From Phycisphaerae bacterium (GTDB lineage Bacteria > Planctomycetota > Phycisphaerae > Sedimentisphaerales > SM23-30), in NCBI GenBank assembly GCA_016342495.1, contig JAEIOG010000002.1, forward strand, positions 1-64,000: DNA of 64,000 nucleotides, in the 5' to 3' direction. The stretch's first letter is position 1; every line of letters begins with the position of its first letter. A program made the translations under genes and the position numbers. Shown one piece after another: positions 7,904-47,448 of this stretch. The notes under the pieces are model-generated. The model did no database searches and was not told the DNA's origin. It saw nothing but the letters and a program-made list of their open reading frames with translations.

Positions 7904-8094
7904 GTAACATTTTAGCGACCTGGGGCAACCGGCGTTAATTAGCCAACAAACAGCTGGTAGCGGTAGCGCCCAGCTAAAAAACGTAAATTGTGGTTTTACG
8001 CCAAAATTGCTTTAAGCATCATGGAATCTGGCATAATGCCTTAGCACGGCGTTGCCGCTTCGTGCTGTTTTGCTTCATATGGCTAAAATATTAC
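7904..8094 (+). mobile_element. MITE copy 1 (191 bp, IS66-like ends)
   Basis: Begins GTAACATTTTAGCGA and ends with the inverted sequence GGCTAAAATATTAC. It is flanked by a perfect 8-bp direct repeat GAATTTTC (7896-7903 and 8095-8102), the signature of transposition. The interior has two hairpins (AGCTGG/CCCAGCT type and AGCACG/CGTGCT type) and no ORF. By eye it is about 80% identical to the copies at 23,090 and 30,938, in the same orientation as the latter. It lies in the 624-bp gap between the LysM gene and comM; I see no gene in the rest of that gap. Confidence 0.92.
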
Positions 8095-8189
8095 GAATTT
8101 TCTTTTTTTTTTGCAATAATTCATTTTAATCCCCGTTAATCAGCTTGTAAAACCTCCCAAGTAATTGGCTTGCAAAAGTCATACTGTAG

Positions 8190-14100: not shown

Positions 14101-15666
14101 TTAATTCAGATTCATCGTCATCAAAAATTCCGCATTGGATTGAACTTTCCTTAAACGGTTTTTCAAAAGCTCGACACTTTCGACCGGGTTCATATCGCTT
14201 AATACCCGACGCAAGCGATAAACCAGTTCCAGTTCCTTCGGATCCATCAGCAACTCTTCACGACGTGTGCCACTGCGACCAATATCAATTGCTGGCCAGG
14301 TGCGACGTTCGACCAGACGACGATCAAGATGCAATTCCATATTACCGGTACCTTTGAACTCTTCAAAAATAACTTCGTCCATCTTTGAACCAGTATCAAC
14401 CAGTGCGGTAGCAAGAATTGTCAGCGAGCCGCCTTCTTCAATATTACGGGCAGCACCAAAGAATTTCTTAGGTTTCTGCAAAGCATTTGCATCAACACCA
14501 CCGGTTAGAATCTTACCGGAATGAGGAATTTCAGTATTATACGCACGAGCCAGACGAGTAATCGAATCCAGCAAAATCACAACATCCTGGCCATATTCAA
14601 CCTGGCGTTTGGCTTTTTCGATAACCATTTCAGCAACCTGTACATGACGGGATGCAGGTTCATCAAAACAGCTGGAGATAACTTCAACTTCTTTGCCAGT
14701 GGCCCGCTGCATTTCTGTCACTTCTTCAGGACGTTCATCAATCAGCAAAACAATAAGTTGTACTTCTGGATGATTTATACTGATAGCATTAGCGATCTTC
14801 TGCAGCAGAATAGTTTTACCGGTTCTAGGCGGAGCAACGATAAGACCACGTTGGCCTTTACCGATTGGAGTTGCGATATCAACAATACGCATGCTGATTT
14901 CTTCCGGGTTTGTCTCCAAAACCAGTCTTTCATTGGGATGCAAAGGGGTAAGATCTTCAAAAACAGTTTTCTCTGTTAGAGCTTCTGGATCTTCATAATT
15001 GACCGCCTCAACTCGCAATAAAGCAAAATATTTTTCCGATTCCTTTGGCGGACGAATCTGACCTGCTACAATATTACCATTTCGCAATCCAAATCGACGA
15101 ATCTGACTGGGCGAAACATAAATATCATCCGGGCAGGGAATATAGTTATAATCCGGAGTCCGCAAAAAACCATAGCCATCTGGCAATAGCTCCAAAACAC
15201 CTTCGCCATACATCAAACCATTACGGCGAATTCGCTCGCGGACAATTTTAAAGGTCAAATCCTGTTTCTTCAAACCAGTATATTCGTTTAGGCCTTCTTC
15301 TTTGGCCATCGCCCGAAGTTCTTCAACGCTCATTTTCTGCAAATCAGTAATATGCAGATTGCCACGTTTGATTTCTTCGTATTTGGCATGGGTCTCTTCA
15401 TCGAAAACATTAACGATGGTATGACTTGAAGATTCTTCCTGAGCCTTTTTGTCATTGGATTTCCCGTTTGTACCATTGCCTTCTTTGACTTGAGACTTCG
15501 AAGCGGCTTTAGCTACCTTGGGCTTGCGACCTCTTTTTTGTTTTTTGTCAGTCACGGCTGATTCCTCCGCTTGCTCTTTGGTATTTCCGTCAACATCTTT
15601 AGCTACCTCTTTAGCAACTTTTTGTGTCTTCTTTTTTGTACTTCTTTTGATAGTGGCCTTAGCCAT
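14101..15666 (-). CDS. rho: Transcription termination factor Rho
   Basis: 521 residues, about 100 longer than E. coli Rho. The extra part is an N-terminal Lys/Ala-rich, low-complexity extension (residues 1-95: [31 protein letters not shown]), typical of high-GC Gram-positive and planctomycete Rho and likely an extra RNA contact. Then come the Rho_N helical domain ([20 protein letters not shown]), the RNA-binding cold-shock-like domain ([20 protein letters not shown]) and the RecA-type motor with Walker [21 protein letters not shown], and the Q/R-loop segment [20 protein letters not shown]. Hexameric RNA/DNA helicase that ends transcription. The start is followed immediately by the basic tail. 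Confidence 0.97.
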
Positions 15667-21668: not shown

Positions 21669-22856
21669 TCATGAGCAAAAGCGAATACGGATTTTCTGTT
21701 GGTTTTTGCTGACGGCCGTTTGAAATTCTGCTGGCGATGGAATGTGTTCGAGTCGCTGGTTGATTGCGCCGGGTGCCCGCACCCGGTATGGCCAACGCTC
21801 ACGCATCACCCGGACATGTTCGCTTATCGTCGCTCGCCGCCGAACATATTTATCCACCACAAAAACCATCCCGTCACTATCAACCTGAATCAGCAAACAA
21901 GCAAACGGATTACTAAAACCAAAATCAATCGCCCGATACGTCTCAAGCCCTTCCCGATATGCCACATCACCAACATTTATATCCGCGTCAAACTCCGCGA
22001 AAACCAAATCTTGAACAGAAGGCCTCTTACATAACATCTCGCTTTGCCACCCCGCTTTGCTGGCCCGACGCTTTTGTGCTATCGCATCGTCAATTTTATA
22101 ATGACCACCCGCCTGCTTTGCCCGCCCCCTGCAATCTGCCAACAATGCACACCGACTGCAACTCCGACCCACACATTTTTCAATCACATCAAACAAACAC
22201 CATTTAAAAATCTCCGCATCACCCTGCTGAGCATTTTTGATAATCTTACTCATCAAACCCGTTGGCCTGTGCATCGTCGACAACACTTCCAGCCTTGCCG
22301 ATATATTATTTTTCGATTGTGTCACAAACTGCGCCGCCTGCCACACATCCTCGTCAAACATCTCCACCTCATCACAACGCAAACGCTGAACATGATGGCC
22401 CCGCACGCTCGATTGCGATTGCGTCAAAGCCTGAACCGATGACCCATTGACAAAGCGACAAATGTTTTGCGTTATCTTGCCATCAACCATTTCTTCATAG
22501 CCACCCATTAGCCCCTGCTGCACATATTCATACATTCGCTGCGACTGCTGTTGGCTGCCGCCCAATATCCGCACCTGACACCTCGGTAAAAAAACACATT
22601 CCAAAAGCGAAGCCGCCGCCGCCAACTGCGTCTTACCGCCACCCCGACAGGACCACACTACAATATCTTTATTGTCATTATTCAAAAGCGAATAACTCAA
22701 ATAATCCAAAGGGGTATTATGTTCCTTGCAAACCGAATTCACCGATAGCTTCAAACCCAAAAATGCCTCCGCATAAGCCGCCACCTGCTCACGACTACTA
22801 GGCCGACATCTCCGCAACCGCTCATACAACTTAACCTGACTACCTTCATCAAACAT
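21669..22856 (-). CDS. Phage-type terminase large subunit, C-terminally decayed
   Basis: About 395 residues from ATG 22,856 (GGGAG 7 bases upstream). The open frame continues to 22,907, but its first codons come from a family A repeat. The packaging ATPase is complete: Walker A VVWSCRGGGKTQLAAAA, Walker B VQRLRCDEVEMFDED, coupling segment LEVLSTMHRPTG, a Cys-rich insert (CVGRSCSRCALLADC), and the start of the RNase H-like nuclease (YRAIDFGFSNPFACLLIQVD). Beyond about residue 350 the frame runs into palindromic repeat DNA (CCGGGTG/CACCCGG near 21,779-21,796) and stops, so the remaining nuclease acids are missing. Probably non-functional as a nuclease, or a domesticated motor. No portal or capsid genes are nearby. 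Confidence 0.8.
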   Translation of the reverse strand: MFDEGSQVKLYERLRRCRPSSREQVAAYAEAFLGLKLSVNSVCKEHNTPLDYLSYSLLNNDNKDIVVWSCRGGGKTQLAAAASLLECVFLPRCQVRILGGSQQQSQRMYEYVQQGLMGGYEEMVDGKITQNICRFVNGSSVQALTQSQSSVRGHHVQRLRCDEVEMFDEDVWQAAQFVTQSKNNISARLEVLSTMHRPTGLMSKIIKNAQQGDAEIFKWCLFDVIEKCVGRSCSRCALLADCRGRAKQAGGHYKIDDAIAQKRRASKAGWQSEMLCKRPSVQDLVFAEFDADINVGDVAYREGLETYRAIDFGFSNPFACLLIQVDSDGMVFVVDKYVRRRATISEHVRVMRERWPYRVRAPGAINQRLEHIPSPAEFQTAVSKNQQKIRIRFCS

Positions 22857-23089
22857 ATCAATTCTCCCAATAATAAAATCATTCCAGGTAGGATGGGCTC
22901 TGCCCATGCCGTTTCAAACACCATGACCACAACCAACACCACAACCCAGCCCGCCTACTAACACCCACCAATCACCCACAGCATATCAAACCATCGCAAA
23001 CACCACCTATAACCACAAGCGCCAGCGTGTGGACGTCAAACCCATGAACAAAGCGAATACCACAACCAACCCGTCACCTAACACCAACC
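22857..23089. repeat. Repeats A and E upstream of the terminase gene
   Basis: Family A copy 4 at 22,887-22,918 (GGTAGGATGGGCTCTGCCCA). Then two family E stretches in leftward sense: 22,930-23,003 and 23,008-23,089. The second includes CCACAAGCGCCAGCG, GGACGTCAAACCCATGAACA and AAGCGAATACCACAACCAAC. The MITE at 23,090 is inserted in the second. Confidence 0.75.
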
Positions 23090-23279
23090 GTAACATTTTA
23101 GCGATCTGGAGCAAAACAGCACGAAGCGGTATCGCCGTGCTAAGGCACTATGCTACATTACATGATGATTAAAGTGATTTTAGCATTAAAACACAATTTG
23201 CGTTTTTTAGCTGGGCGCTGCCGCTACCAGCTGTTTGTTGGTCAATTGTCGCCTTTGCTACATGTCGCTAAAATATTAC
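23090..23279 (-). mobile_element. MITE copy 2 (190 bp), nested in a family E repeat
   Basis: Starts GTAACATTTTAGCGA, ends TCGCTAAAATATTAC, with a perfect 8-bp target duplication CACCAACC (23,082-23,089 and 23,280-23,287). As reverse complement it differs from copy 3 (30,938) by only about three bases over 190, so both moved recently. Without the element the flanks rejoin as CTAACACCAACCAAT, matching uninterrupted family E copies. Confidence 0.95.
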
Positions 23280-23287
23280 CACCAACC

Positions 23288-24631: not shown

Positions 24632-25109
24632 AATAACTTCCTCTGTAATATTTATTTTAATACGCAGTCATCTATCCGAATTATCTACTAATAAATTCAC
24701 ATCCTAATATAACAAATCCAACATAAAAAACAATCCCAAATAAAAGCGAAGCAAAATAATTTCAACAAGAGCGAAGCGATTTCCACCAAACTCAAATTGT
24801 CATCCTCGCGCAGACGAGGATCCAGCCAAACCTATCCAAAATAACAAACTCACAATAAGTATCCCAAACATCCTGCTTGTCAACATTTCAACCGTGAACA
24901 AAGCGAACACGTTACCCACTAATCCCACCCCACGGCCCGAAGGGCCAACACAACTCAGCCCAGGGCAAAATGAACAAAGTGAATGTCGCCCTGGGTAAAC
25001 CTCCCCTCTCTTAAATTTTAAAACCATGAGCGAAGCGAATACCACAACCCACCCCGCCAACTAACACCCACCAATCACTCGTAGCATATCAAACCATCGC
25101 AAACACAAA
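24632..25109. repeat. Repeat cluster: family F copy 3 and family E
   Basis: 24,855-24,910 duplicates the CATCCTGCTTGTC...CGAACAC block of 23,830-23,880. 24,928-25,020 is family F, almost identical over about 115 bp to 23,970-24,075. 25,022-25,105 is family E (ATGAGCGAAGCGAATACCAC, then CTAACACCCACCAATCAC and GCATATCAAACCATCGC). No gene; the first 150 bp are AT-rich leader of the lipoprotein gene. Confidence 0.75.
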
Positions 25110-25180: not shown

Positions 25181-25579
25181 TCACCCAAACGCCTTAGCCA
25201 ACTTCACCAATATTGGCTTCAAATCCTTGTCGGCTATACCATAATCATTATCTTCTTTCTCTTTTTCCTGATTATCATCATTGCATCTTTCAATCATATC
25301 CAAAGCCGCCCGCCGTGCAACATCGGGTTTATCCGAATTCAGCAGCCCAACCAGCGTCTCCGCCGCTATCGGGCCATACCGGGCAATCTTCACTCTTGTC
25401 TCCAATTGTGCCTTTCTACATAAGCAGGCGATTTCCCGATTGAAAGATTTGCTATTCATAACCCGCTCCAGTTGACCCGGTTTTAATTTATACTTTTCAA
25501 TAATCTGCTCCTGCGTCAATTTCCCTTCAAACAAATCAAACGCAACACTACAATGTTTACCAATCGATCTTCTTGCCAT
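25181..25579 (-). CDS. Small-terminase-like DNA-binding protein
   Basis: 132 residues from ATG 25,579 (GGGAG 8 bases upstream; a TTG at 25,594 is less likely). The N-terminal HTH-like part (LFEGKLTQEQIIEKYKLKPGQLERVMNS) looks like the DNA-recognition domain of small terminases. Then come a helical middle (ARYGPIAAETLVGLLNSDKPDVARRAALDMIERC) and an acidic, charged linker before a C-terminal helix. This shape and its place near a large terminase suggest the DNA-selection subunit of a packaging motor. The large subunit gene is 2.3 kb downstream, separated by repeats and two small genes. Confidence 0.6.
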   Translation of the reverse strand: MARRSIGKHCSVAFDLFEGKLTQEQIIEKYKLKPGQLERVMNSKSFNREIACLCRKAQLETRVKIARYGPIAAETLVGLLNSDKPDVARRAALDMIERCNDDNQEKEKEDNDYGIADKDLKPILVKLAKAFG

Positions 25580-25599
25580 AACAATATCTCCCAATCTCA

Positions 25600-25643: not shown

Positions 25644-26384
25644 TTACTCTCTTACTCTCTTCTTCTTAATAAAATACACCGGCACACTACCCATCTGCTC
25701 GACAACAAATTCACATTTATCCACAAAACTATCTTGCCGCTTATTTACATACTTACTCATAAAACGTTTTATCCGATAACACACCAATTCTTTTTCACTT
25801 TCACCCAGACCATCTATAGCTTCCATCAATTTTTTCCCACTAATCAAATCTCTATCCTTAATCTCCATCTCATCAAAAGTCGCCAACAATTTTTCATGCT
25901 CAGCCGACACGCCACCATCATAGCGAATCATCCCGGCTTTTTCAAAAAATGGATTAATCCTTCCCATCACCGCCAGTGCTTCTACATATTTCGTCCCAGC
26001 CATATCCAGGGTCTCTTTTACCAGCCAACTGCCCAGCGACATCCCGCGATATTGGGGCGCTATAATCACCCGACTTATACAACGCATTTCACTATTCAAT
26101 AATTTCAATCCCGCCGACCTGTCCGAACCGCAATACCTGTTATCTGTTGCGACATTTCTCAACCGGCAATTTATCACCGGCATCGAATAAACTATCACAC
26201 CCACAACTTCCCTTTTACCGCCTAACTTATAAACTAAGGTTTTGCGCTCAGAATAAATCGCGAAAACCTTGTCAACAAACCCTGGCCTGCCATTGCGATA
26301 ATGAAAATCTTTCAAAGCACCATAAGCTCCCATCCCCGCCGGCTCAATCACCAAACCATCATACAATGTACATCTTTTCACCAT
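25644..26384 (-). CDS. GNAT-family N-acetyltransferase, partner of the ABC ATPase
   Basis: 246 residues. GNAT core with the acetyl-CoA pyrophosphate loop PQYRGMSLGSWLV (about residues 112-124) after the beta-4 strand ISRVIIA, and MGRINPFFEKAGM as the C-terminal motif. The last 80 residues are a charged helical extension. The ATG lies 6 bp after the stop of the ABC ATPase gene, so the two are translationally coupled. In archaea the same pairing occurs as a single fused protein (COG2401, ABC-type ATPase fused to a predicted acetyltransferase). The substrate is unknown; in a phage context it might modify a nucleic acid or a host protein. Confidence 0.83.
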   Translation of the reverse strand: MVKRCTLYDGLVIEPAGMGAYGALKDFHYRNGRPGFVDKVFAIYSERKTLVYKLGGKREVVGVIVYSMPVINCRLRNVATDNRYCGSDRSAGLKLLNSEMRCISRVIIAPQYRGMSLGSWLVKETLDMAGTKYVEALAVMGRINPFFEKAGMIRYDGGVSAEHEKLLATFDEMEIKDRDLISGKKLMEAIDGLGESEKELVCYRIKRFMSKYVNKRQDSFVDKCEFVVEQMGSVPVYFIKKKRVRE

Positions 26385-26390
26385 GACTTC

Positions 26391-27062
26391 TCACTTCCCC
26401 GGATAATACACATCGCAATGACTGCCCAAATGTTTTATCATCACCACATCCGGCGCCAGGTCTTCCAGCATATCATCATGGCTGGTAGCTACCACAAATG
26501 TCGTTCCAAACCGGTTGGCAAACTTTCGCACATTATGAGCCACCACCGCCGCAGTCACCCGATCCAGCGTTGAGCAAAACTCATCGATAAAAATCACATC
26601 CGGATTAATCGACAATGCCAGTGCCAACTTAAACCGATAGCGTTGACCATCACTTAAATGCTCAGAATTTCTCAGCACCGCAAAGGCATCACTTAATCCA
26701 GCCATACTGAGCCAACTCATAACATCACTCAAATGGTCATCAATAAAACAATCAACCAATGGCCTGCCGGTTGGCACTTCTAATTCTCCAAGATTAAGAA
26801 TCTCTTTAAAACCGACACCCTTCTTTTTGGCATTAGCCTGCATCTGCTCATACAACATCTTAAATATCTGCGATTTACCGGCCCCGCTGCCACCGGTAAT
26901 ATAAACCACCTGACCAGATTCGATTTTGACTTTGCAATTATCAACAACAATCATCTCCCGACCAGGTCGGTTGCCCAGACCAAACATCGACGAAACCGCC
27001 GCGACATTTGGCGATAATTTTACTTTGGTATCAAACTTCTTCGTTAAAACATAACTTGTCAT
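26391..27062 (-). CDS. Soluble ABC-type ATPase (COG2401-like)
   Basis: 223 residues from ATG 27,062 (GGAG 9 bases upstream; the open frame to 27,149 overlaps the preceding gene by about 50 bp). All ABC motifs are present: Walker A GGSGAGKS (about residues 60-67), signature LSDGQRYRFKLALAL (variant of LSGGQ), Walker B DVIFIDEF with catalytic Glu, D-loop STLD and switch His in VVATSHDD. No membrane domain is encoded nearby, so it is not a transporter. With the coupled acetyltransferase it matches the two halves of COG2401. It was expressed from the leftward promoter of the phage-like region. Confidence 0.87.
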   Translation of the reverse strand: MTSYVLTKKFDTKVKLSPNVAAVSSMFGLGNRPGREMIVVDNCKVKIESGQVVYITGGSGAGKSQIFKMLYEQMQANAKKKGVGFKEILNLGELEVPTGRPLVDCFIDDHLSDVMSWLSMAGLSDAFAVLRNSEHLSDGQRYRFKLALALSINPDVIFIDEFCSTLDRVTAAVVAHNVRKFANRFGTTFVVATSHDDMLEDLAPDVVMIKHLGSHCDVYYPGK

Positions 27063-27096: not shown

Positions 27097-27567
27097 TTAG
27101 CAGCATCCCGCGAATCTTGCTGATTTTTCATTGAGGTTTTTATGTTCATTTCTGGCTTTGTGTTTTATTAGCCATTCATCCAAATAACAAAGTTGGCGAT
27201 AAACTGTACTGACAGAAATTTTTCTTTTCAATGCGATAGTTCGCCGCCCCTGACCTAACAAAAAATGGTCGTAGGCAATCAATAATTGATTGTCAGTGAA
27301 CTGATTACGATTTCGCAAAAAACACATATAGTCGTCGCTCAATAATCTTTTTACCATTTTACGAATTTTCCTGGATATATTCGCCGGGGTGATACCAATT
27401 AAAATACCCAGTTGACTAAAACTGGCATTATGGGACAAGTGTAGCTCCAGAATTATCCGGTCTGGTGGGGCCAGAAGTTTCATTCTATTCATGATAATGT
27501 CATACTCTGCCAATTGCATTTTTCGAAAATCAACTGATTTACTAATTTGATCTAATTTGCCAACCAT
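27097..27567 (-). CDS. Two-HTH regulator, sigma-70 region 4-like
   Basis: 156 residues from ATG 27,567 (AAAGGAG 5 bases upstream; an in-frame TTG lies at 27,582). Residues about 30-75 resemble sigma region 4 or a related HTH (RIILELHLSHNASFSQLGIL, GITPANISRKIRKMVKRL). A second HTH is near 100-140 (QGRRTIALKRKISVSTVYRQ, LCYLDEWLIKHK). It is the first gene leftward from the control region and 34 bp before the ABC ATPase gene. Likely the activator or late-gene regulator of the cassette, or a small-terminase-like protein; both readings fit. Confidence 0.65.
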   Translation of the reverse strand: MVGKLDQISKSVDFRKMQLAEYDIIMNRMKLLAPPDRIILELHLSHNASFSQLGILIGITPANISRKIRKMVKRLLSDDYMCFLRNRNQFTDNQLLIAYDHFLLGQGRRTIALKRKISVSTVYRQLCYLDEWLIKHKARNEHKNLNEKSARFAGCC

Positions 27568-27724
27568 AAAAACTCCTTTCAATACATTCTATATAATCAA
27601 TACAAATAGTTTGTTATTTATATAACTAACAGACTTATGAAGTTTACAACAGATTTAGGGAAATGCAAAAAAAATTTAGAATTTTTATAAAAAAATATTA
27701 AAATTACTTGTTTATCTAACTTTT

Positions 27725-27980
27725 TAGGGCATAATTAAGGGTATAGAGGGTAAATAATTAAACAGTTATTATTTAATAGAAGGCCCGGCCTGTGAATTAA
27801 ATAACAGTTGTCGCAGTTTATTTAGGGTATTTTTATGGTAAGTTTGTGTCTACTACTAATTTTTACATGTAATTGCATAATTTATACCCAAAGGGTATGA
27901 ACTTTTTGGCAGGTCCAGTTTTAATGCCTTGCAATGCAAGAACTTATGTATTTAAGAATGGAAAATTTTAAGGGTAATCA
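27725..27980. promoter_or_regulatory. Control region with repeated GGGTAT half-sites
   Basis: In the 442-bp divergent gap (27,568-28,009) the word GGGTAT or GGGTAA occurs at 27,739-27,744, 27,748-27,753, 27,825-27,830, 27,893-27,898 and 27,972-27,977. The fourth is half of a perfect 15-bp palindrome ATACCC-AAA-GGGTAT (27,884-27,898). This is the layout of a lambda-like operator array, with the S24 repressor gene starting at 28,010. Promoter boxes are not clear enough to call. Confidence 0.55.
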
Positions 27981-28009
27981 GTATACAATGCTTTTCAACA
28001 GGAGCTAAT

Positions 28010-28795
28010 ATGTCTTTAGGTCAGATCATCAGACAAAAACGTGAATCATTAAAAATGACATTAGATGAAGTATCACGTCACGTGGGTTATTCAAAACCTT
28101 ATCTTTCGACCATTGAAACTGGGCGGGTCAAGAATCCGCCAGCTGATGATTTACTAATTAAGCTTGAGCAAACTTTGCAGTTTACTTCTGGTGATTTACT
28201 AAGGATGGCCCATTTGGAAAAGATGCCAGCTGATGTTCGCCAGGCCTTTGAAAACAATCAGGCTGAGGTGGAATACTGGCGCGGGTTGGTTCGGAAGCTG
28301 GCGGCGAATGATGATAATTTAGCGATTGAAATTGATGAAAAACACGGTCATTTTTTGGGAAAAAACGCAAATAACTGCCAACAAATGTCGATTCCGGGAC
28401 TTTTGGTGCCCGTAATTAATAAGGTTTCGGCGGGATATCCGGTGGATTATGACGATATGGGCTATCCACCTGGTGCGGCGGATGACTATGTACGCTGTCC
28501 GGATTTGCATGATGCTAATGCTTTTGCGGTACGGGTAGTGGGTGATTCGATGGAGCCAAAGTATAAGCAAGGGGACATCATTGTGTTTTCACCAAATATA
28601 AATGTCAATAGCGGCGATGACTGTTTTGTGCGGTTGACCGACCCGCATGAGACGACATTTAAGCAGGTGTTTTTTAATGGGGATGGGAAAGTACGTCTTC
28701 AGCCTCGTAATCATAAATATGCGCCGATGGTATTGCCCGAAGAAAAGATTAATGGGATATATAAGGCGGTTATTCGGTATGAAACGATTACGTGA
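28010..28795 (+). CDS. CI/LexA-type repressor: XRE HTH plus S24 peptidase domain
   Basis: 261 residues. XRE helix-turn-helix in residues 5-60 (IIRQKRESLKMTLDEVSRHV, YSKPYLSTIETGRVKNPP). The C-terminal S24 self-cleavage domain has a cleavage-site-like VSAGYP (Ala-Gly), the serine in VVGDSMEP and the general-base lysine in TTFKQV. Such proteins repress phage lytic genes and self-cleave with RecA after DNA damage. AGGAGC precedes the ATG. It is divergent from the HTH/ABC/GNAT/terminase genes with a half-site array between. It probably controls them. Confidence 0.92.
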   Translation: MSLGQIIRQKRESLKMTLDEVSRHVGYSKPYLSTIETGRVKNPPADDLLIKLEQTLQFTSGDLLRMAHLEKMPADVRQAFENNQAEVEYWRGLVRKLAANDDNLAIEIDEKHGHFLGKNANNCQQMSIPGLLVPVINKVSAGYPVDYDDMGYPPGAADDYVRCPDLHDANAFAVRVVGDSMEPKYKQGDIIVFSPNINVNSGDDCFVRLTDPHETTFKQVFFNGDGKVRLQPRNHKYAPMVLPEEKINGIYKAVIRYETIT

Positions 28796-29698
28796 TTTTG
28801 TTTTATTTTTGTTATTTTTTTGTGGCGCTGGTTTGATATGCTGCGGGCGATTGGTTGGTGTTAGTTAGCGAGCTGGGTTGTGGGATTCGCTTTGCTCATG
28901 GGTTTGAAGTCCACGTGCTGGCGCTTGTGGTTATAGTTTGTGTTTGGGTTTTATTTTACAGGGTGGGCAAAGTAGTTGCCCATCTTATGCGACAGTATCT
29001 GTTCAATGGTAATGCCGACAATATCCTTTAGAGCTGTGGGCAGCATATGGGAATTTCCATCGGTTAACAAGTTAACCGCTGGGTGCCCGTCGCCGTTGAA
29101 AGATTATCAGGGGACGATGAATTGGATGAGGATTGAATTTTGTAGAAGGTATGAGGTATTCGCTTCGCTCATGAAATTTATATCAGCGTGGGCATGGCCC
29201 ACCCTTTCGTTGGTAGAATTGTTTGCCGCTGGCTTTGTTCGCTGGTGCCGTTTGCTTCATGTTTGCGGTTGGGACAGAGTCTGCAAAATGAATTTGTCCA
29301 TCCTACCTGGCTGGCTACATTGGCTGGTCGGTGGGTTGGTGTTAGTTGGCGGGCTTGGTTGTGGGATTCGCTGTGCTCATGGGTTTGACGTCCACGCGCT
29401 GGCGCTTGTGGTTATAGTTTGTGTTTGGGCTAGTTTGATATGCTGCGGGCGATGGGTTAGTGTTGGTTGGCGGGGCTGGTGTTTGTGTTTGAGGCAAAAT
29501 ATGATAGCGGGATAGGTAGATGATTTAGCCGGCCTATATGGCTGTGGGCAGCATATGGAAATCCCCGTCGGTTAAGAAGTTAACCGCTGGGTGTCCATCG
29601 TTTTTTTGGGTTCATTGAGATATTTGATTGGGTTAAGATTAAGACGTTGCATGCAACGTCTCTACAATTTGGTGGTGTAGCCGAAAAGGAGTAAGGTA
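28796..29698. repeat. 903-bp repeat block right of the repressor
   Basis: No gene. Contains, in rightward sense, family E at 28,832-28,949 and 29,321-29,490 (one and a half copies). It holds GTTAAC palindrome units at 29,035-29,093 and 29,543-29,600, both led by TGTGGGCAGCATATGG. At 29,642-29,661 is a 20-bp palindrome AGACGTTGCA plus its complement, followed by CTAC, a variant of palindrome B. A GGGTGGGCAAAGTAGTTGCCCAT element (28,961-28,984, in two halves) and GGGCATGGCCCACCC (29,190-29,205) resemble family A. The E copies are inverted relative to those at 22.9-25.1 kb. Confidence 0.75.
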
Positions 29699-30865: not shown

Positions 30866-30937
30866 TAATAAATCCTGGTAGTTAAGGTGAGCGGTAAACT
30901 ATCAAAGGTTTGGAGAGTTATCAGAGTAAAATTATTG

Positions 30938-31127
30938 GTAACATTTTAGCGACATGTAGCAAAGGCGACAATTGACCAACAGACAGCTGGTAGCGGCAGC
31001 GCCCAGCTAAAAAACGCAAATTGTGTTTTAATGCTAAAATCACTTTAATCATCATGTAATGTAGCATAGTGCCTTAGCACGGCGCTACCGCTTCGTGCTG
31101 TTTTGCTCCAGATCGCTAAAATGTTAC
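30938..31127 (+). mobile_element. MITE copy 3 (190 bp)
   Basis: GTAACATTTTAGCGA at the left and TCGCTAAAATGTTAC at the right form perfect 15-bp terminal inverted repeats. The 8-bp target duplication AATTATTG (30,930-30,937 and 31,128-31,135) is perfect. Inside are two hairpins and no ORF. It is nearly identical to copy 2 in opposite orientation. Confidence 0.96.
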
Positions 31128-43134: not shown

Positions 43135-46100
43135 CTAAAATGAAGTGTTCTCTATGCCGAACATCACGCCCCCGGCAATATAACCCTGGTTGCGAAAAAC
43201 TGGAACAGGGAGGAATTGTTTTGGAGTACCGAAAGGTTTGTCGCTGGCGATAGCGGTGGTTAGGCCAATGAGATAATCGCCATAATTGATTTTCAATTTG
43301 GTGCCATTGGCATCTTTAGCTATGAGCTGCTGAATATAATTTAATCGCTGCCGATAATATTGCTTTTGGGTATCGGTTACATTAATTTTGTTTTGATTAA
43401 TGAGTTCAAGTTGGGACTGCTGCAGTTTGAGTTCGGCGTTTAGCAGGCCGATAGCCTTATCATATTCGGCTGAATTTCTAACCGGAATGGTCGTGCCATT
43501 CATATACAGGTCAAATTTATCACCCTGGAAAACCAGGTGATTGTTGCGGGAGCCATCGGCTAACTGATCGAATTTACAAGTCATTTTTTGCCATTGGTAT
43601 TGTGATGTTTTAAGTGAAGGGATAATTTTTTGCATCCAGCCGGGGCCACCAGAGCCAATGGTTAAGCCATCATTAAGGACGGTTTGGCCTTTGCCAGTCC
43701 AGCAATATTCCATATTAAAAACATCATAAAGACTGGTTTGGAAATCATATTTTTCGCTTACATCACCTTGAAGGATAAGTCCGGGCAGTTTATTTTCGAC
43801 AATTCGACAAAGCGCGGGGCTGGCCATAAGGGCATTGCTTTGCATAGAATATTTCAAGATCGGTTTTTCTTCGGCAAGGTCACAATTAATATCGACAGAA
43901 TAAACACCTGCATTAACACTGGTGATAACACTGCCAAGAAGCTGTTGGTCGGCTATGGAAAATTTACCTTTGAGCTGTTTGGGTTGGAGAAAAACTTCAT
44001 TTTCAGGATCGGTAAAACCCAGGTTGGAAATATTGGCATTAACCTGAATATTACATTGCTTGAGATATTTAACTATTGCTTCGGCATTAAAATCTGTGTC
44101 AGAGGAATTGGTAAAATCAAGTATTTTTATATCGGCTTGCATCTGGTCAATATCGAGGTTTTGGCTATTGAGAAAAATTTCTCCGCTCGGATATTTATCA
44201 AGTTTATCAAATACAGAAAGATTGGTTAGATGAGCATTTACGTTAACATCATTTTGATTTAGCTTAAACTGAAGATTGTCCAACAAGGTCAGGTTATCGC
44301 AAAATTTAATCTTATCGAAAGCTATGACGAAATCCTGAGATTTATATTGGCCACCCAGGGTGCCCATGCAATCAATTGAATGGATATAAAATTCAGGGGG
44401 AGAATTATGTTTGACAGTAAGAGCAATATCACCGGAGAGTTGGGTCTGAAAGTCTTCGACTGGGAAGTTATCGAGCCAACCTATTAAGCTCTGGCCATCG
44501 GTTATATTGAAGTTGCAATTATAATTCTGGTCGTCTTTGATTGCTATGGCAATAACATTATCGAGAGCATTGATTTTAATACGGTTTAAGTTAAGTTTTG
44601 ATTTATTTTTGTCATAGGCGGCATCAAAAGCGATATCTAATTTTTCAGTGGCAGGCTTATTAAAATGTTGTGGTCCATCTTGAATTTCAAGTTTATGTTT
44701 TATCTCAGTATTGGTCAAATCGAGATTAGACTGAATATCAACACTATCGCTATCCCATTTAATAATCCCATCAAACTGGGCAGCGCCTTGCAGCTGTGGC
44801 AGGTCATCATAGCCAGCGAAAACCAGGTCAAGAATTTGTTCAGATTGGATATTTGAATTAACATTAAAATTACCCTCATAAATCGATGTAAAATAATTAT
44901 AATCATAAACATCGCCAACGGATTCATCCAGATACAAAGAGCCACTGGCACTAAGGCGGGATTTATCCAGCAGAAAATCGAGCGACAGGCAATTGGCAAT
45001 GATCATCGGTTGGCTATTGAAAAAACCTGGAAAAATGCAACGCATCAGATCATAATTAATTTTAATTTCAAAATTGGTATTAAGTTTGCAAGGCTGTTGA
45101 GAAATTTTATTATAGGTATGAAATTCTTGTTTTTTATTTTTGACAATAATATCAAAGTCAGCTTCGGTTGCGTCAAAACCGAGTTTCGCCTGCCAGTTGT
45201 TTGCATGATTGAGTTTAAAACCTAACTTGATTTTACCCGTGAGATTTTCCAGTTGGTGATCTTTGACTTTTATCGAGCCATCAAAGTCTGGAAAAGCCTG
45301 GAAAAGTTTTTCGCAATGGTCGGTTTCTGCAATAAGAGTCGCATCGTAGAATTGATAGCTTCCCAGGTTAAAAGGCAGGAGTTGATTTTCTAAATTAATA
45401 TTGCTGTAAAAATCTTTTCTAAAACAGCCCTTCACATTTAGATTCAGGCCATCGATATCCATTGCTACCTTGCCATTAATATAGCCAATCACTATATTTT
45501 CGGTTAAATCAAAATCTATATGAGCTGGAAAATTCATTAACTTGTGGTAGGTAAATTTGCCGCTGTTGTCTTGTAAACAAAAATCTGCATTAGTCAAATC
45601 GAGTTTGCTATGCAATGTATTTTTTGTGGGGCTTTGCTCAAAATTAATATTCGCCTGTAAATCTCCATCCAGATTAATTTGTTTGCGAATAAGCATTTTC
45701 TGCAAGAAAGGAAATATTTTTTTCAACGAGTCAATATTTTTCAATTCAATATCGGCGTCGAGCTGGGCAATGTTTTTTTGATCGGTTAGAATCAGCTTAT
45801 GAGCTTGCAACTGGATATTGCCCTGGCCAACACTGACGTCTGCAGAAATATTCTCAAAAGTATTTTGATTTGTTGGCCATCGGCCTTGAACATTCATTTT
45901 TAGCTGTTGGCCCAGCTCTTTTGCAAAGATAGTTTGGTTTTGATAATATCCATGGCAGGAACTATCACCGGCCATCACCGCTGAAGCGGCTAAAGTATCA
46001 TCATGAAAATCCAGATCAAATACCATCGGGCCACCTGCGACGATATTTTCACTGATCGGAAAACATAAATCATTGCCAAATTGAGCGACATCTTCAAAAT

Positions 46101-47448
46101 TAATTCTAACAGTGCCGTTGGGTTTGATCGCCTGTGCGAAGATATCTTGAATAATTATTTGGGCTCGCATGGTTGCAGTTGACAGCTGAGAATCATTAAT
46201 ATCAAGTTTTATTTTGTTCGCTTGTTTGTTGAGTTTACCTTGCATAACAAACGGTATGCCCGCAGGTTTGATGGCATATTCGAGATCAAAACCCATGTCA
46301 GTAGCATCTATTTCAAAGGATGCCCGGGTAAAAGAACCTGGTGTACAATTAAGATTAAACTTCAGATTGCCCCGAGGCTTTAGCTGTTGAGCCAACTGCA
46401 AATTATTTAAAAAGGGCAAAGTCTGGAAAATTTTATCAAAATTCAGTTGGCTATCTTTCAGTTCAAAATTTAAGCTGTTCAAACCAAAATCATAGCTGAA
46501 TTCACCAGCGGTATTAAATTCTGAACTGGCAAATGTTGATTGAGCTTCGATATAGTCCTGGGAAATAATTGAATTAATTTTTGTCGCTATGGAAAAATCT
46601 TTGAATATATCGCCCTGCTCGCTTTTAACAGTTAAATTATTGACAGCCAAGTTCAGATTGGCATTTAGGGAAATATCTGGATTAAATCTGGTAGTTAGAT
46701 TTGCCGAAAGCCTACCGGTAATACCAGTGGGGTTGATGCCAAAGTCAGCCAAAAGGGATTTCAGTTTCTCGTTAAGGATAATTCTGGAAAGATCAAAATT
46801 TGTGATGTCAACGCAAACGGGGATTTTAGCATCGCCGGGCGATAAATAATCTGGAACATCTCCATTTTTGCCAAACGAGGTTATAGCCGGGTCAGAGCCG
46901 GATTTTTGGGAGGCATTTATATTCCATGCAAATTTATTGTTTAGATTATTAATCCAGACCTGGCCATTACTGTAAAGGGTGAGAATTTTTTCATTTTTGA
47001 GGAAAAATCCCACGGTCATCTGTTGATAATCAAAACGGTCAAAATCAATTTGCAGGGGTGGCAATTCCATAACATTGACACGGCCATCTGGTAATACCAC
47101 TACATTGACATCGACATCCTGCATCACAGCCAACTCTAAATGCCTGGCTTTAAGTCCAAAAAGATCAAATTCACACTGAAATTTGCCAATTCGCATCAGT
47201 TGGCCAATACCAAAATCACTATGTCGGGCGACATTAATACCCTGAATTTCAATGCCTTGCGTCCAGCTTAATTTTAACGAATCGATTTTAGTCTGACGAT
47301 TCATCTGGGAAGTCATCTGTTTTTCAATAGTGGCCTTTATATAACTTTTGGGCAGCCAATATGGTAAGGTTAAAGTAGCCAACGCCAGCAAAAACACGCA
47401 TAAAGCTATTATTATCAGTATCTTATGTTTTTTCGACCTTTTTTTCAT
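43135..47448 (-). CDS. Very large AsmA/TamB-like membrane-anchored protein
   Basis: 1437 residues. One N-terminal signal anchor (ILIIIALCVFLLALATLTLP) and then AsmA-type start (YIKATIEKQMTSQMNRQTKI, DSLKLSWTQGIEIQGINVAR). The rest is long, beta-rich repeats of the TamB/Mdm31 kind (hydrophobic groove rods) and a C-terminal helix with coiled-coil character (LLNAELKLQQSQLELINQNK). Such proteins bridge inner and outer membranes and are thought to move phospholipid to the outer membrane. That fits a didermic planctomycete. No ribosome site is obvious. It is convergent with the MATE gene. Confidence 0.85.
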   Translation of the reverse strand: MKKRSKKHKILIIIALCVFLLALATLTLPYWLPKSYIKATIEKQMTSQMNRQTKIDSLKLSWTQGIEIQGINVARHSDFGIGQLMRIGKFQCEFDLFGLKARHLELAVMQDVDVNVVVLPDGRVNVMELPPLQIDFDRFDYQQMTVGFFLKNEKILTLYSNGQVWINNLNNKFAWNINASQKSGSDPAITSFGKNGDVPDYLSPGDAKIPVCVDITNFDLSRIILNEKLKSLLADFGINPTGITGRLSANLTTRFNPDISLNANLNLAVNNLTVKSEQGDIFKDFSIATKINSIISQDYIEAQSTFASSEFNTAGEFSYDFGLNSLNFELKDSQLNFDKIFQTLPFLNNLQLAQQLKPRGNLKFNLNCTPGSFTRASFEIDATDMGFDLEYAIKPAGIPFVMQGKLNKQANKIKLDINDSQLSTATMRAQIIIQDIFAQAIKPNGTVRINFEDVAQFGNDLCFPISENIVAGGPMVFDLDFHDDTLAASAVMAGDSSCHGYYQNQTIFAKELGQQLKMNVQGRWPTNQNTFENISADVSVGQGNIQLQAHKLILTDQKNIAQLDADIELKNIDSLKKIFPFLQKMLIRKQINLDGDLQANINFEQSPTKNTLHSKLDLTNADFCLQDNSGKFTYHKLMNFPAHIDFDLTENIVIGYINGKVAMDIDGLNLNVKGCFRKDFYSNINLENQLLPFNLGSYQFYDATLIAETDHCEKLFQAFPDFDGSIKVKDHQLENLTGKIKLGFKLNHANNWQAKLGFDATEADFDIIVKNKKQEFHTYNKISQQPCKLNTNFEIKINYDLMRCIFPGFFNSQPMIIANCLSLDFLLDKSRLSASGSLYLDESVGDVYDYNYFTSIYEGNFNVNSNIQSEQILDLVFAGYDDLPQLQGAAQFDGIIKWDSDSVDIQSNLDLTNTEIKHKLEIQDGPQHFNKPATEKLDIAFDAAYDKNKSKLNLNRIKINALDNVIAIAIKDDQNYNCNFNITDGQSLIGWLDNFPVEDFQTQLSGDIALTVKHNSPPEFYIHSIDCMGTLGGQYKSQDFVIAFDKIKFCDNLTLLDNLQFKLNQNDVNVNAHLTNLSVFDKLDKYPSGEIFLNSQNLDIDQMQADIKILDFTNSSDTDFNAEAIVKYLKQCNIQVNANISNLGFTDPENEVFLQPKQLKGKFSIADQQLLGSVITSVNAGVYSVDINCDLAEEKPILKYSMQSNALMASPALCRIVENKLPGLILQGDVSEKYDFQTSLYDVFNMEYCWTGKGQTVLNDGLTIGSGGPGWMQKIIPSLKTSQYQWQKMTCKFDQLADGSRNNHLVFQGDKFDLYMNGTTIPVRNSAEYDKAIGLLNAELKLQQSQLELINQNKINVTDTQKQYYRQRLNYIQQLIAKDANGTKLKINYGDYLIGLTTAIASDKPFGTPKQFLPVPVFRNQGYIAGGVMFGIENTSF

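What the first reader, a model, noticed from the sequence alone, without database searches (positions are those of the whole stretch)
25644..27062. Coupled ABC ATPase and GNAT genes match the split halves of COG2401
Seen: ABC ATPase with intact Walker A, LSDGQ-type signature, Walker B Glu and switch His, no transporter partner, stop 6 bp before the ATG of a GNAT protein. Known: archaea encode a fused ABC-ATPase/acetyltransferase protein (COG2401) of unknown function. A bacterial, split, phage-linked version would hint at a nucleic-acid-directed role.
Basis: partly seen in the sequence, partly recalled or inferred. Interest (0 to 1): 0.6.

Follow-up and report, generated by a model that had tools for sequence, protein, structure and literature searches.

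The report
Phage-derived ABC–acetyltransferase gene pair in planctomycetes
Two neighbouring genes, an ATPase and an acetyltransferase-like enzyme, turn out to be part of a small set of phage DNA-packaging and DNA-marking genes that a whole class of planctomycete bacteria seems to have kept in its chromosomes without any capsid gene of the type tested, so a phage machine may have been put to a new use.

Summary
The pair is real and as described: ABC ATPase (26391-27062, minus) and GNAT protein (25644-26384, minus), 6 bp apart. The COG2401 idea is partly supported: one PHROG model of a fused phage ABC-GNAT protein covers both kinds of half, fused orthologues occur in other planctomycetes, and two deposited phage GNAT relatives are named after MK0520/COG2401. 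No archaeal COG2401 sequence could be compared. Phage versions were already predicted as a DNA-base acylation system (Iyer and Aravind; read here only as a citing passage in PMC7824862). What seems new is the setting. In the window's class a single-copy cassette, HTH-ABC-GNAT-(ParB)-TerS-TerL, sometimes with a divergent S24 repressor, is inherited with the genomes: GNAT in 196 of 298, TerL strongly tied to it, catalytic residues and purifying selection kept, yet HK97 capsid genes in only 31 of those 196. In phages the same order (ParB-ABC-GNAT-TerS-TerL-portal) recurs. Best reading: a domesticated phage modification/packaging module, most likely acyl-marking DNA; a transfer agent with an unrecognised capsid is not excluded. 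The window's own copy has a truncated TerL and no ParB, so it may be decaying.

The parts
28010..28795 (+). S24-peptidase/HTH repressor (CI/LexA-like), divergent from the cassette
   Evidence: Pfam Peptidase_S24 6.7e-20, HTH_3 1.2e-8; phrog_4 repressor 3.5e-33; a divergent homologue upstream of the cassette in 18 of 141 loci, the window included
27583..28009 (.). intergenic control region with five AGGGTA hexamers, one pair as TACCC-N3-GGGTA
   Evidence: 5 observed, 0.12 mean in 1000 shuffles, 19 in the whole window; not seen as a repeated motif in the 10 relatives' intergenic regions examined
27097..27582 (-). HTH protein, sigma-region-4/antitermination-Q-like
   Evidence: sigma70-ECF 1.6e-5, weak Phage_antitermQ; homologues in 83 of 101 order-level loci
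26391..27062 (-). ABC ATPase (223 aa from the likely start)
   Evidence: phrog_293 2.2e-36, phrog_11143 7.9e-27; 35-42% identity to split phage homologues
25644..26384 (-). GNAT acyltransferase-like protein (246 aa)
   Evidence: phrog_886 1.6e-8; AlphaFold model pLDDT 88.7 with GNAT fold
25181..25594 (-). terminase small subunit (TerS)-like
   Evidence: phrog_2538 E 0.004 for the window copy, 6.1e-9 for the orthologue in L177
23456..24631 (-). two small ORFs of unknown function (94 and 171 aa, the second with a lipoprotein-like N-terminus) between TerS and TerL
   Evidence: no Pfam match over its cut-off; other genomes carry unrelated host genes at this place
21669..22907 (-). terminase large subunit (TerL), truncated: matches intact relatives up to about residue 392; ATPase domain kept, last catalytic parts of the nuclease domain lost
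   Evidence: phrog_2 1.9e-13; alignment with six intact relatives; no continuation in the other frames

Best explanation
The pair is the split form of an ABC-ATPase/GNAT module that tailed phages carry just upstream of their packaging genes. Planctomycetes of the window's class inherited one copy of that packaging-proximal block (S24 repressor, HTH activator, ABC, GNAT, ParB-like, TerS, TerL) and kept it in the chromosome without virion genes of the tested families: a domesticated module. How it most likely works: the ABC protein acts as an ATP-dependent DNA clamp (inferred from family), with the ParB-like protein as DNA-loading partner (inferred from gene order); the GNAT transfers an acyl group from an acyl-CoA to a base amine in DNA (inferred; first predicted by Iyer and Aravind); and the terminase then acts on, or spares, marked DNA (inferred). 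Shown here: coupling, gene order, conservation, selection, lack of association with the tested capsid and portal families. Not shown: any chemistry.
For: Coupling: ABC and GNAT on the same strand in 94 of 101 order-level loci, 54 with a gap of 50 bp or less; of 80 split-type IMG/VR loci 76 show a GNAT with the ABC, four of them fused. Phage order: ParB directly upstream in 72 of 80 and TerL downstream in 71 of 80. Chromosomal cassette: HTH 83, ABC 94, GNAT 101, ParB 80, TerS 51, TerL 39 of 101 loci within the stretches fetched. Class: GNAT 196 of 298 genomes, TerL 178 of 298 (150 at E 1e-50 or better); 136 both, 60 GNAT only, 14 TerL only, 88 neither, Fisher p 6e-21 (a test that ignores relatedness); 77 of 100 placed pairs within 10 kb. 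Vertical: GNAT tree needs 7 family changes, shuffled mean 39.6 (97 of 101 rows). Function kept: TerL Walker and RNase-H Asp columns near 100% in 39 rows; median dN/dS 0.16-0.27 for five genes, 0.44 for HTH. No capsid link: PF05065 in 31 of 196 GNAT-positive and 35 of 102 GNAT-negative genomes; portal PF04860 over cut-off in 4 of 59. Acyl chemistry: fused-type phage neighbours include PanD (8 of 79 loci) and CoA-transferase III (10 of 79) clusters and, in two phages, a formyltransferase. Fold: Mu Mom, TmcA/NAT10 and KacT are among the best Foldseek matches.
Against: No biochemical evidence of DNA modification. Fold matches do not single out nucleic-acid GNATs: glyphosate acetyltransferase, RimI and others tie with Mom at Z 11-12, and no sequence similarity to Mom was found. 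60 of 196 genomes have the GNAT without a strong TerL, so the link to packaging is not obligatory. Only two virion families were tested, so a capsid of another type may be missed. The window's own copy has a truncated TerL, no ParB in the window, a Ser in the CoA loop and a long branch (1.13). The S24 repressor is found in only 18 of 141 loci.
Confidence: 0.5

Rival explanations
1. A gene transfer agent: the cassette is the packaging and regulation locus, and the capsid and tail genes lie elsewhere and belong to families not tested. S24 repressor release starts HTH-driven expression; TerS/TerL fill particles with host DNA; ABC-GNAT marks or prepares it.
For: Intact TerL and TerS under purifying selection, single copy, vertical inheritance, a phage-like S24 repressor and a sigma/Q-like HTH at the head of the cassette in part of the loci.
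Against: HK97 capsid and PF04860 portal are not associated with the cassette; host genes such as sulfatase, RpiB and an FAD oxidoreductase sit between TerS and TerL; some families keep ABC-GNAT and have no TerL nearby.
Confidence: 0.22
2. A plain prophage remnant in decay, without function.
For: For the window copy: truncated TerL, missing ParB, repeats next to the TerL, Ser in the CoA loop, long tree branch.
Against: For the class: conservation in 163 of 230 better genomes, nearly always one copy, dN/dS well below 1, catalytic residues kept. In the window the ABC, GNAT, TerS, HTH and repressor frames are all open.
Confidence: 0.13
3. A cellular RNA- or protein-acetylating enzyme (TmcA- or KacT-like) that happens to neighbour phage genes.
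For: TmcA, NAT10, KacT and AtaT are among the closest folds; ABC-GNAT persists without a strong TerL in 60 of 196 genomes.
Against: The numerous phage versions sit beside ParB and terminase genes; no tRNA or ribosome gene association was noticed in the neighbourhoods read.
Confidence: 0.1
4. An anti-phage defence locus (for example MADS-like) built on phage packaging genes.
For: P0002 matches PADLOC mad3 at 8e-17, over the ABC C-terminal half only.
Against: The best stretch covers 81 of 374 positions and is what any ABC ATPase may give; near-universal single-copy inheritance is unlike the patchy spread of defence genes.
Confidence: 0.05

Closest known systems
[quoted passage not shown] 2013, as described in PMC7824862, section 3.4.7; passage read, the 2013 paper itself not held)
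   Same: GNAT coupled to an ABC ATPase; found in phages
   Different: Here split, chromosomal, class-wide in planctomycetes and tied to terminase genes without virion genes of the tested families; that setting is not in the passage read
COG2401 / MK0520, ABC-type ATPase fused to a predicted acetyltransferase (name recalled and seen as product names)
   Same: Same two domains, fused form present in other planctomycetes and in phages
   Different: The window's form is split and bacterial; no archaeal sequence was compared
SSU5-like phages and phage-plasmids, Nickievirus, Rhizobium phages: ParB-ABC-GNAT-TerS-TerL-portal
   Same: Same gene order and homologous ABC (35-42% identity) and GNAT
   Different: Those are full phages with virion genes; TerL of the chromosomal cassette is only about 25% identical to phage TerLs
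Phage Mu Mom (PDB 8bv8)
   Same: GNAT fold, VIA Z 12.0, rmsd 3.2, 141 residues aligned
   Different: No sequence match, no Pfam Mom hit for P0001, no ABC gene beside Mom in the Mu stretch read; many other GNATs tie
RcGTA-type gene transfer agents (recalled)
   Same: Domesticated phage packaging genes inherited vertically
   Different: The HK97 capsid and portal families are not associated with this cassette

Membership tests
ABC-GNAT predicted DNA-modification module (Iyer/Aravind) | GNAT gene or domain coupled to an ABC ATPase | tested here: met
ABC-GNAT predicted DNA-modification module (Iyer/Aravind) | acyl modification of a DNA base | not testable with these tools
   Needs nucleoside mass spectrometry
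COG2401 / MK0520 | both domains in one polypeptide | tested here: not met
   Split in the window and in all 94 order-level loci with both (0 fused); fused in other planctomycete families
COG2401 / MK0520 | halves homologous to the halves of a fused ABC-GNAT protein | tested here: met
   phrog_11143 both halves; hhalign 96.4%; tested on phage fused proteins
COG2401 / MK0520 | match to the COG2401 profile or to archaeal members | tested here: inconclusive
   No COG library; no archaeal sequence reachable; phrog_886 matched none of 14 control genomes, four of them archaeal; only the product names
Mom | sequence similarity to Mom (PF25680) | tested here: not met
   (no Mom hit for P0001; Mu Mom itself hits the model)
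Mom | Mom-type fold | tested here: inconclusive
   Z 12.0, tied with unrelated GNATs
ABC transporter ATPase (LolD, FtsE) | curated family score reached and a membrane partner next to it | tested here: not met
   Best NCBIfam FtsE 66.9 bits against a cut-off of 264.85, LolD 50.5 against 307.75; no permease gene seen among the neighbouring ORFs
RimI-type N-acetyltransferase | match to a RimI family model | tested here: not met
   No RimI model among the four NCBIfam families at E up to 1 for P0001; as a fold RimI ties
Gene transfer agent | conserved terminase genes in host genomes | tested here: met
Gene transfer agent | conserved HK97 capsid and portal genes | tested here: not met
   PF05065 31 of 196 with and 35 of 102 without the GNAT; PF04860 over cut-off in 4 of 59; other capsid families not tested
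Gene transfer agent | release of particles carrying host DNA | not testable with these tools
   Needs culture work
Intact prophage | virion genes next to the terminase | tested here: not met
   G000 has no PF05065 match and no PF04860 match; flanks are host genes such as rho, coaE, a mechanosensitive channel and PTS EIIA

The most novel reading that the evidence does not exclude
Planctomycetes of this class run an ancient, vertically inherited, possibly damage-inducible machine made from a phage's DNA-marking and DNA-packaging genes (ABC-GNAT-ParB-TerS-TerL): chromosomal DNA is acyl-marked by ABC-GNAT and processed by a functional terminase, either inside the cell with no capsid at all or into a transfer particle whose shell belongs to no recognised capsid family.
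Probability: 0.3. Interest if true: 0.88.

Novelty: new variant of a known kind. Interest (0 to 1): 0.62.

Why it matters
A bacterial class that keeps it with an intact terminase and without recognised virion genes offers a way to test the function in cells that do not depend on a lytic cycle, and would add a domesticated terminase, or a new kind of transfer agent, to the known fates of prophages. It may also explain why phage databases call a GNAT protein 'ABC transporter ATP-binding subunit' (phrog_886): the name was probably carried over from the fused protein (inference).

Tried and rejected
LolD/FtsE-type transporter ATPase and RimI: family scores far below the curated cut-offs or absent. 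Mom homology: no sequence match. Whole-family search with phrog_293 in relatives: useless, since all 59 genomes and all 14 controls ring through ordinary ABC transporters. First repressor search: two of eight seeds (L179, L180) were FHA proteins by mistake; redone without them. First cluster analysis chained HTH and ABC into one cluster (c0); separated by profile search. Direct test of docking: not done; the fused model (L058, pLDDT 81.9, pTM 0.69) starts inside the ABC domain because the ORF begins after the start of the tblastn match, so Walker A is missing, and no inter-domain error was returned. Archaeal COG2401: the single genome-contig scan returned no archaeal record. Phage TerL search with the chromosomal TerL: only distant relatives, many split into an ATPase and a nuclease gene; no source phage identified. 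Paper searches without a relevant hit: (search listings only); PMC11780129 was read by passages and does not mention the pair. PMC7824862, found, was read by passages only. No statement is made that the cassette is unpublished beyond these searches.

Full report
1. On the minus strand of the window an ABC ATPase gene (26391-27062 from the likely ATG; the ORF runs to 27149) is followed after 6 bp by a GNAT gene (25644-26384). Walker A, LSDGQ, Walker B Glu and switch His are present. No membrane-domain neighbour was seen.

2. What the proteins are. P0002 matches phrog_293 (2.2e-36) and phrog_11143 (7.9e-27); P0001 matches phrog_886 (1.6e-8). phrog_886 is labelled 'ABC transporter ATP-binding subunit', but the SSU5 gene with that kind of name (SSU5_129) aligns as the GNAT downstream of the ABC gene. 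In phages the pair is either split (SSU5, Nickievirus, Rhizobium phages) or fused (Gordonia/Rhodococcus phage Jace gp86, AnClar gp2, a Porphyromonas phage). GNAT profiles of the two forms align with probability 96.4% over 78 columns. In deposited phages Cyrano and ST13-OXA48phi12.3 the GNAT gene is named after MK0520/COG2401.

3. Phage neighbourhoods. Of 80 split-type IMG/VR loci, 76 show a GNAT with the ABC, 72 have a ParB-like gene directly upstream, 71 a TerL and 54 a portal gene downstream. In 79 fused-type loci a ParB-like gene upstream is again the commonest neighbour (55 loci), followed by terminase genes; a CoA-transferase cluster occurs in 10 and a PanD cluster in 8; the stricter profile count gives ParB 45 of 79 and TerL 10 of 79, the TerL profile there being built from split-type phages. 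A formyltransferase follows in AnClar and the Porphyromonas phage. These fit an acyl-transfer chemistry, as predicted by Iyer and Aravind (passage in PMC7824862).

4. The chromosomal cassette. In the window's genome (G000; a planctomycete by my reading of its nearest named matches, several of which are titled Phycisphaeraceae or Planctomycetota) the pair is single-copy. phrog_886 is found in 108 of 148 genomes of the relatives sample, the own genome included, and in 0 of 14 controls. I fetched stretches from 100 of the 107 other genomes and found, with the window, GNAT in 101, ABC in 94, HTH in 83, ParB in 80, TerS in 51 and TerL in 39 of 101 loci, limited by contig ends and stretch length. 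Four of the seven loci without ABC start at or near a contig end. Host genes (sulfatase, RpiB, FAD oxidoreductase) are interspersed. Flanking genes are shared between genera of one family. The GNAT tree (97 of 101 rows; 4 dropped by length) follows the families: 7 changes against a shuffled mean of 39.6.

5. Class and phylum. The GNAT profile is found in 196 of 298 class genomes (163 of 230 better ones) and 68 of 392 phylum genomes (some shared with the class sample). Outside the order many are fused ABC-GNAT proteins of about 410-560 aa: in 40 loci fetched, fused forms with TerL next door (for example L387-L389, L401, L402), fused forms without TerL nearby (for example L383-L386, L394, L395, L400) and split forms all occur. 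TerL is found in 178 of 298 genomes. With TerL at E 1e-50 or better, 136 genomes have both, 60 only GNAT, 14 only TerL, 88 neither; of 100 genomes whose places were listed for both, 77 pairs lie within 10 kb, 11 within 10-50 kb, 12 on different contigs.

6. Function is kept, the tested virion genes are not. TerL columns for Walker A, Walker B and the RNase-H aspartates are near 100% in 39 rows. Same-genus dN/dS medians: ABC 0.25, GNAT 0.25, ParB 0.27, TerL 0.19, TerS 0.16, HTH 0.44 (pairs with dS below 1.5 only). HK97 capsid PF05065 occurs in 66 of 298 genomes: 31 of 196 with and 35 of 102 without the GNAT. Portal PF04860 passes its cut-off in 4 of 59 relatives. Other capsid families were not tested.

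7. Regulation. An S24/HTH repressor lies divergently upstream in 18 of 141 loci, the window (28010-28795) among them. The window's intergenic region holds AGGGTA five times (0.12 expected in shuffles); relatives do not share the motif. Which protein binds it is unknown.

8. Structure. The P0001 model (pLDDT 88.7) is a GNAT fold. Foldseek's first ten include Naa50, Mu Mom, KacT, ArgA, NAT10 and TmcA; by VIA-align Mom scores Z 12.0, level with glyphosate acetyltransferase (12.1) and RimI (11.9). So the fold fits but does not prove a nucleic-acid substrate. No solved structure matches the GNAT profile by sequence below E 0.01 (best 0.015).

9. State of the window copy. TerL matches intact relatives up to about residue 392 and then stops short of the CDPAG and DHxIDALRYF motifs, with no continuation in other frames and dispersed repeats nearby. 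No ParB gene of this kind was found in the window. The CoA-loop Gly is Ser, as in 4 of 101 rows with the window counted, and the branch is long. This copy may be decaying or may rely on ABC-GNAT alone, as in families that have ABC-GNAT without TerL nearby.

10. Verdict. The module itself is known as a prediction; the split form is a new member of it. The vertically inherited cassette with terminase and without the tested capsid and portal families, in a planctomycete class, is the new part. The most likely mechanism is acyl-marking of DNA by ABC-GNAT, with ParB and terminase as DNA-handling partners; a transfer agent with an unrecognised shell is the main rival.

Noticed in passing
class sample, family f11 (for example G151, G160, G169, G177, G183): A family most of whose members lack the GNAT cassette has a very common, mostly single HK97 capsid gene of similar length and weak TerL matches: a candidate conserved prophage or transfer agent of its own.
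   Followed up: no
window 22912-23281: Dispersed repeats next to the TerL gene, 84-98% identical to copies at 30936-31127, 7904-8095, 29334-29479, 28853-28946 and 25016-25106.
   Followed up: partly
window 27583-28009: Five AGGGTA hexamers, two of them facing each other, in the control region of the repressor and HTH genes.
   Followed up: partly
window 43135-47448: A 1437-aa ORF without any Pfam match at 1e-5.
   Followed up: no
L424-L465 (IMG/VR): In phages the TerL relatives of this cassette are often encoded as two genes, nuclease part and ATPase part, with the nuclease gene first.
   Followed up: no
window 14101-15666 and L170 11122-12270: A rho gene lies on the downstream side of the cassette in the window and in one genome of another family, which may mark a shared ancestral location.
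   Followed up: partly
whole window, near 27500: Cumulative GC skew has its minimum close to the divergent promoter region of the cassette; it may only reflect gene orientation.
   Followed up: no
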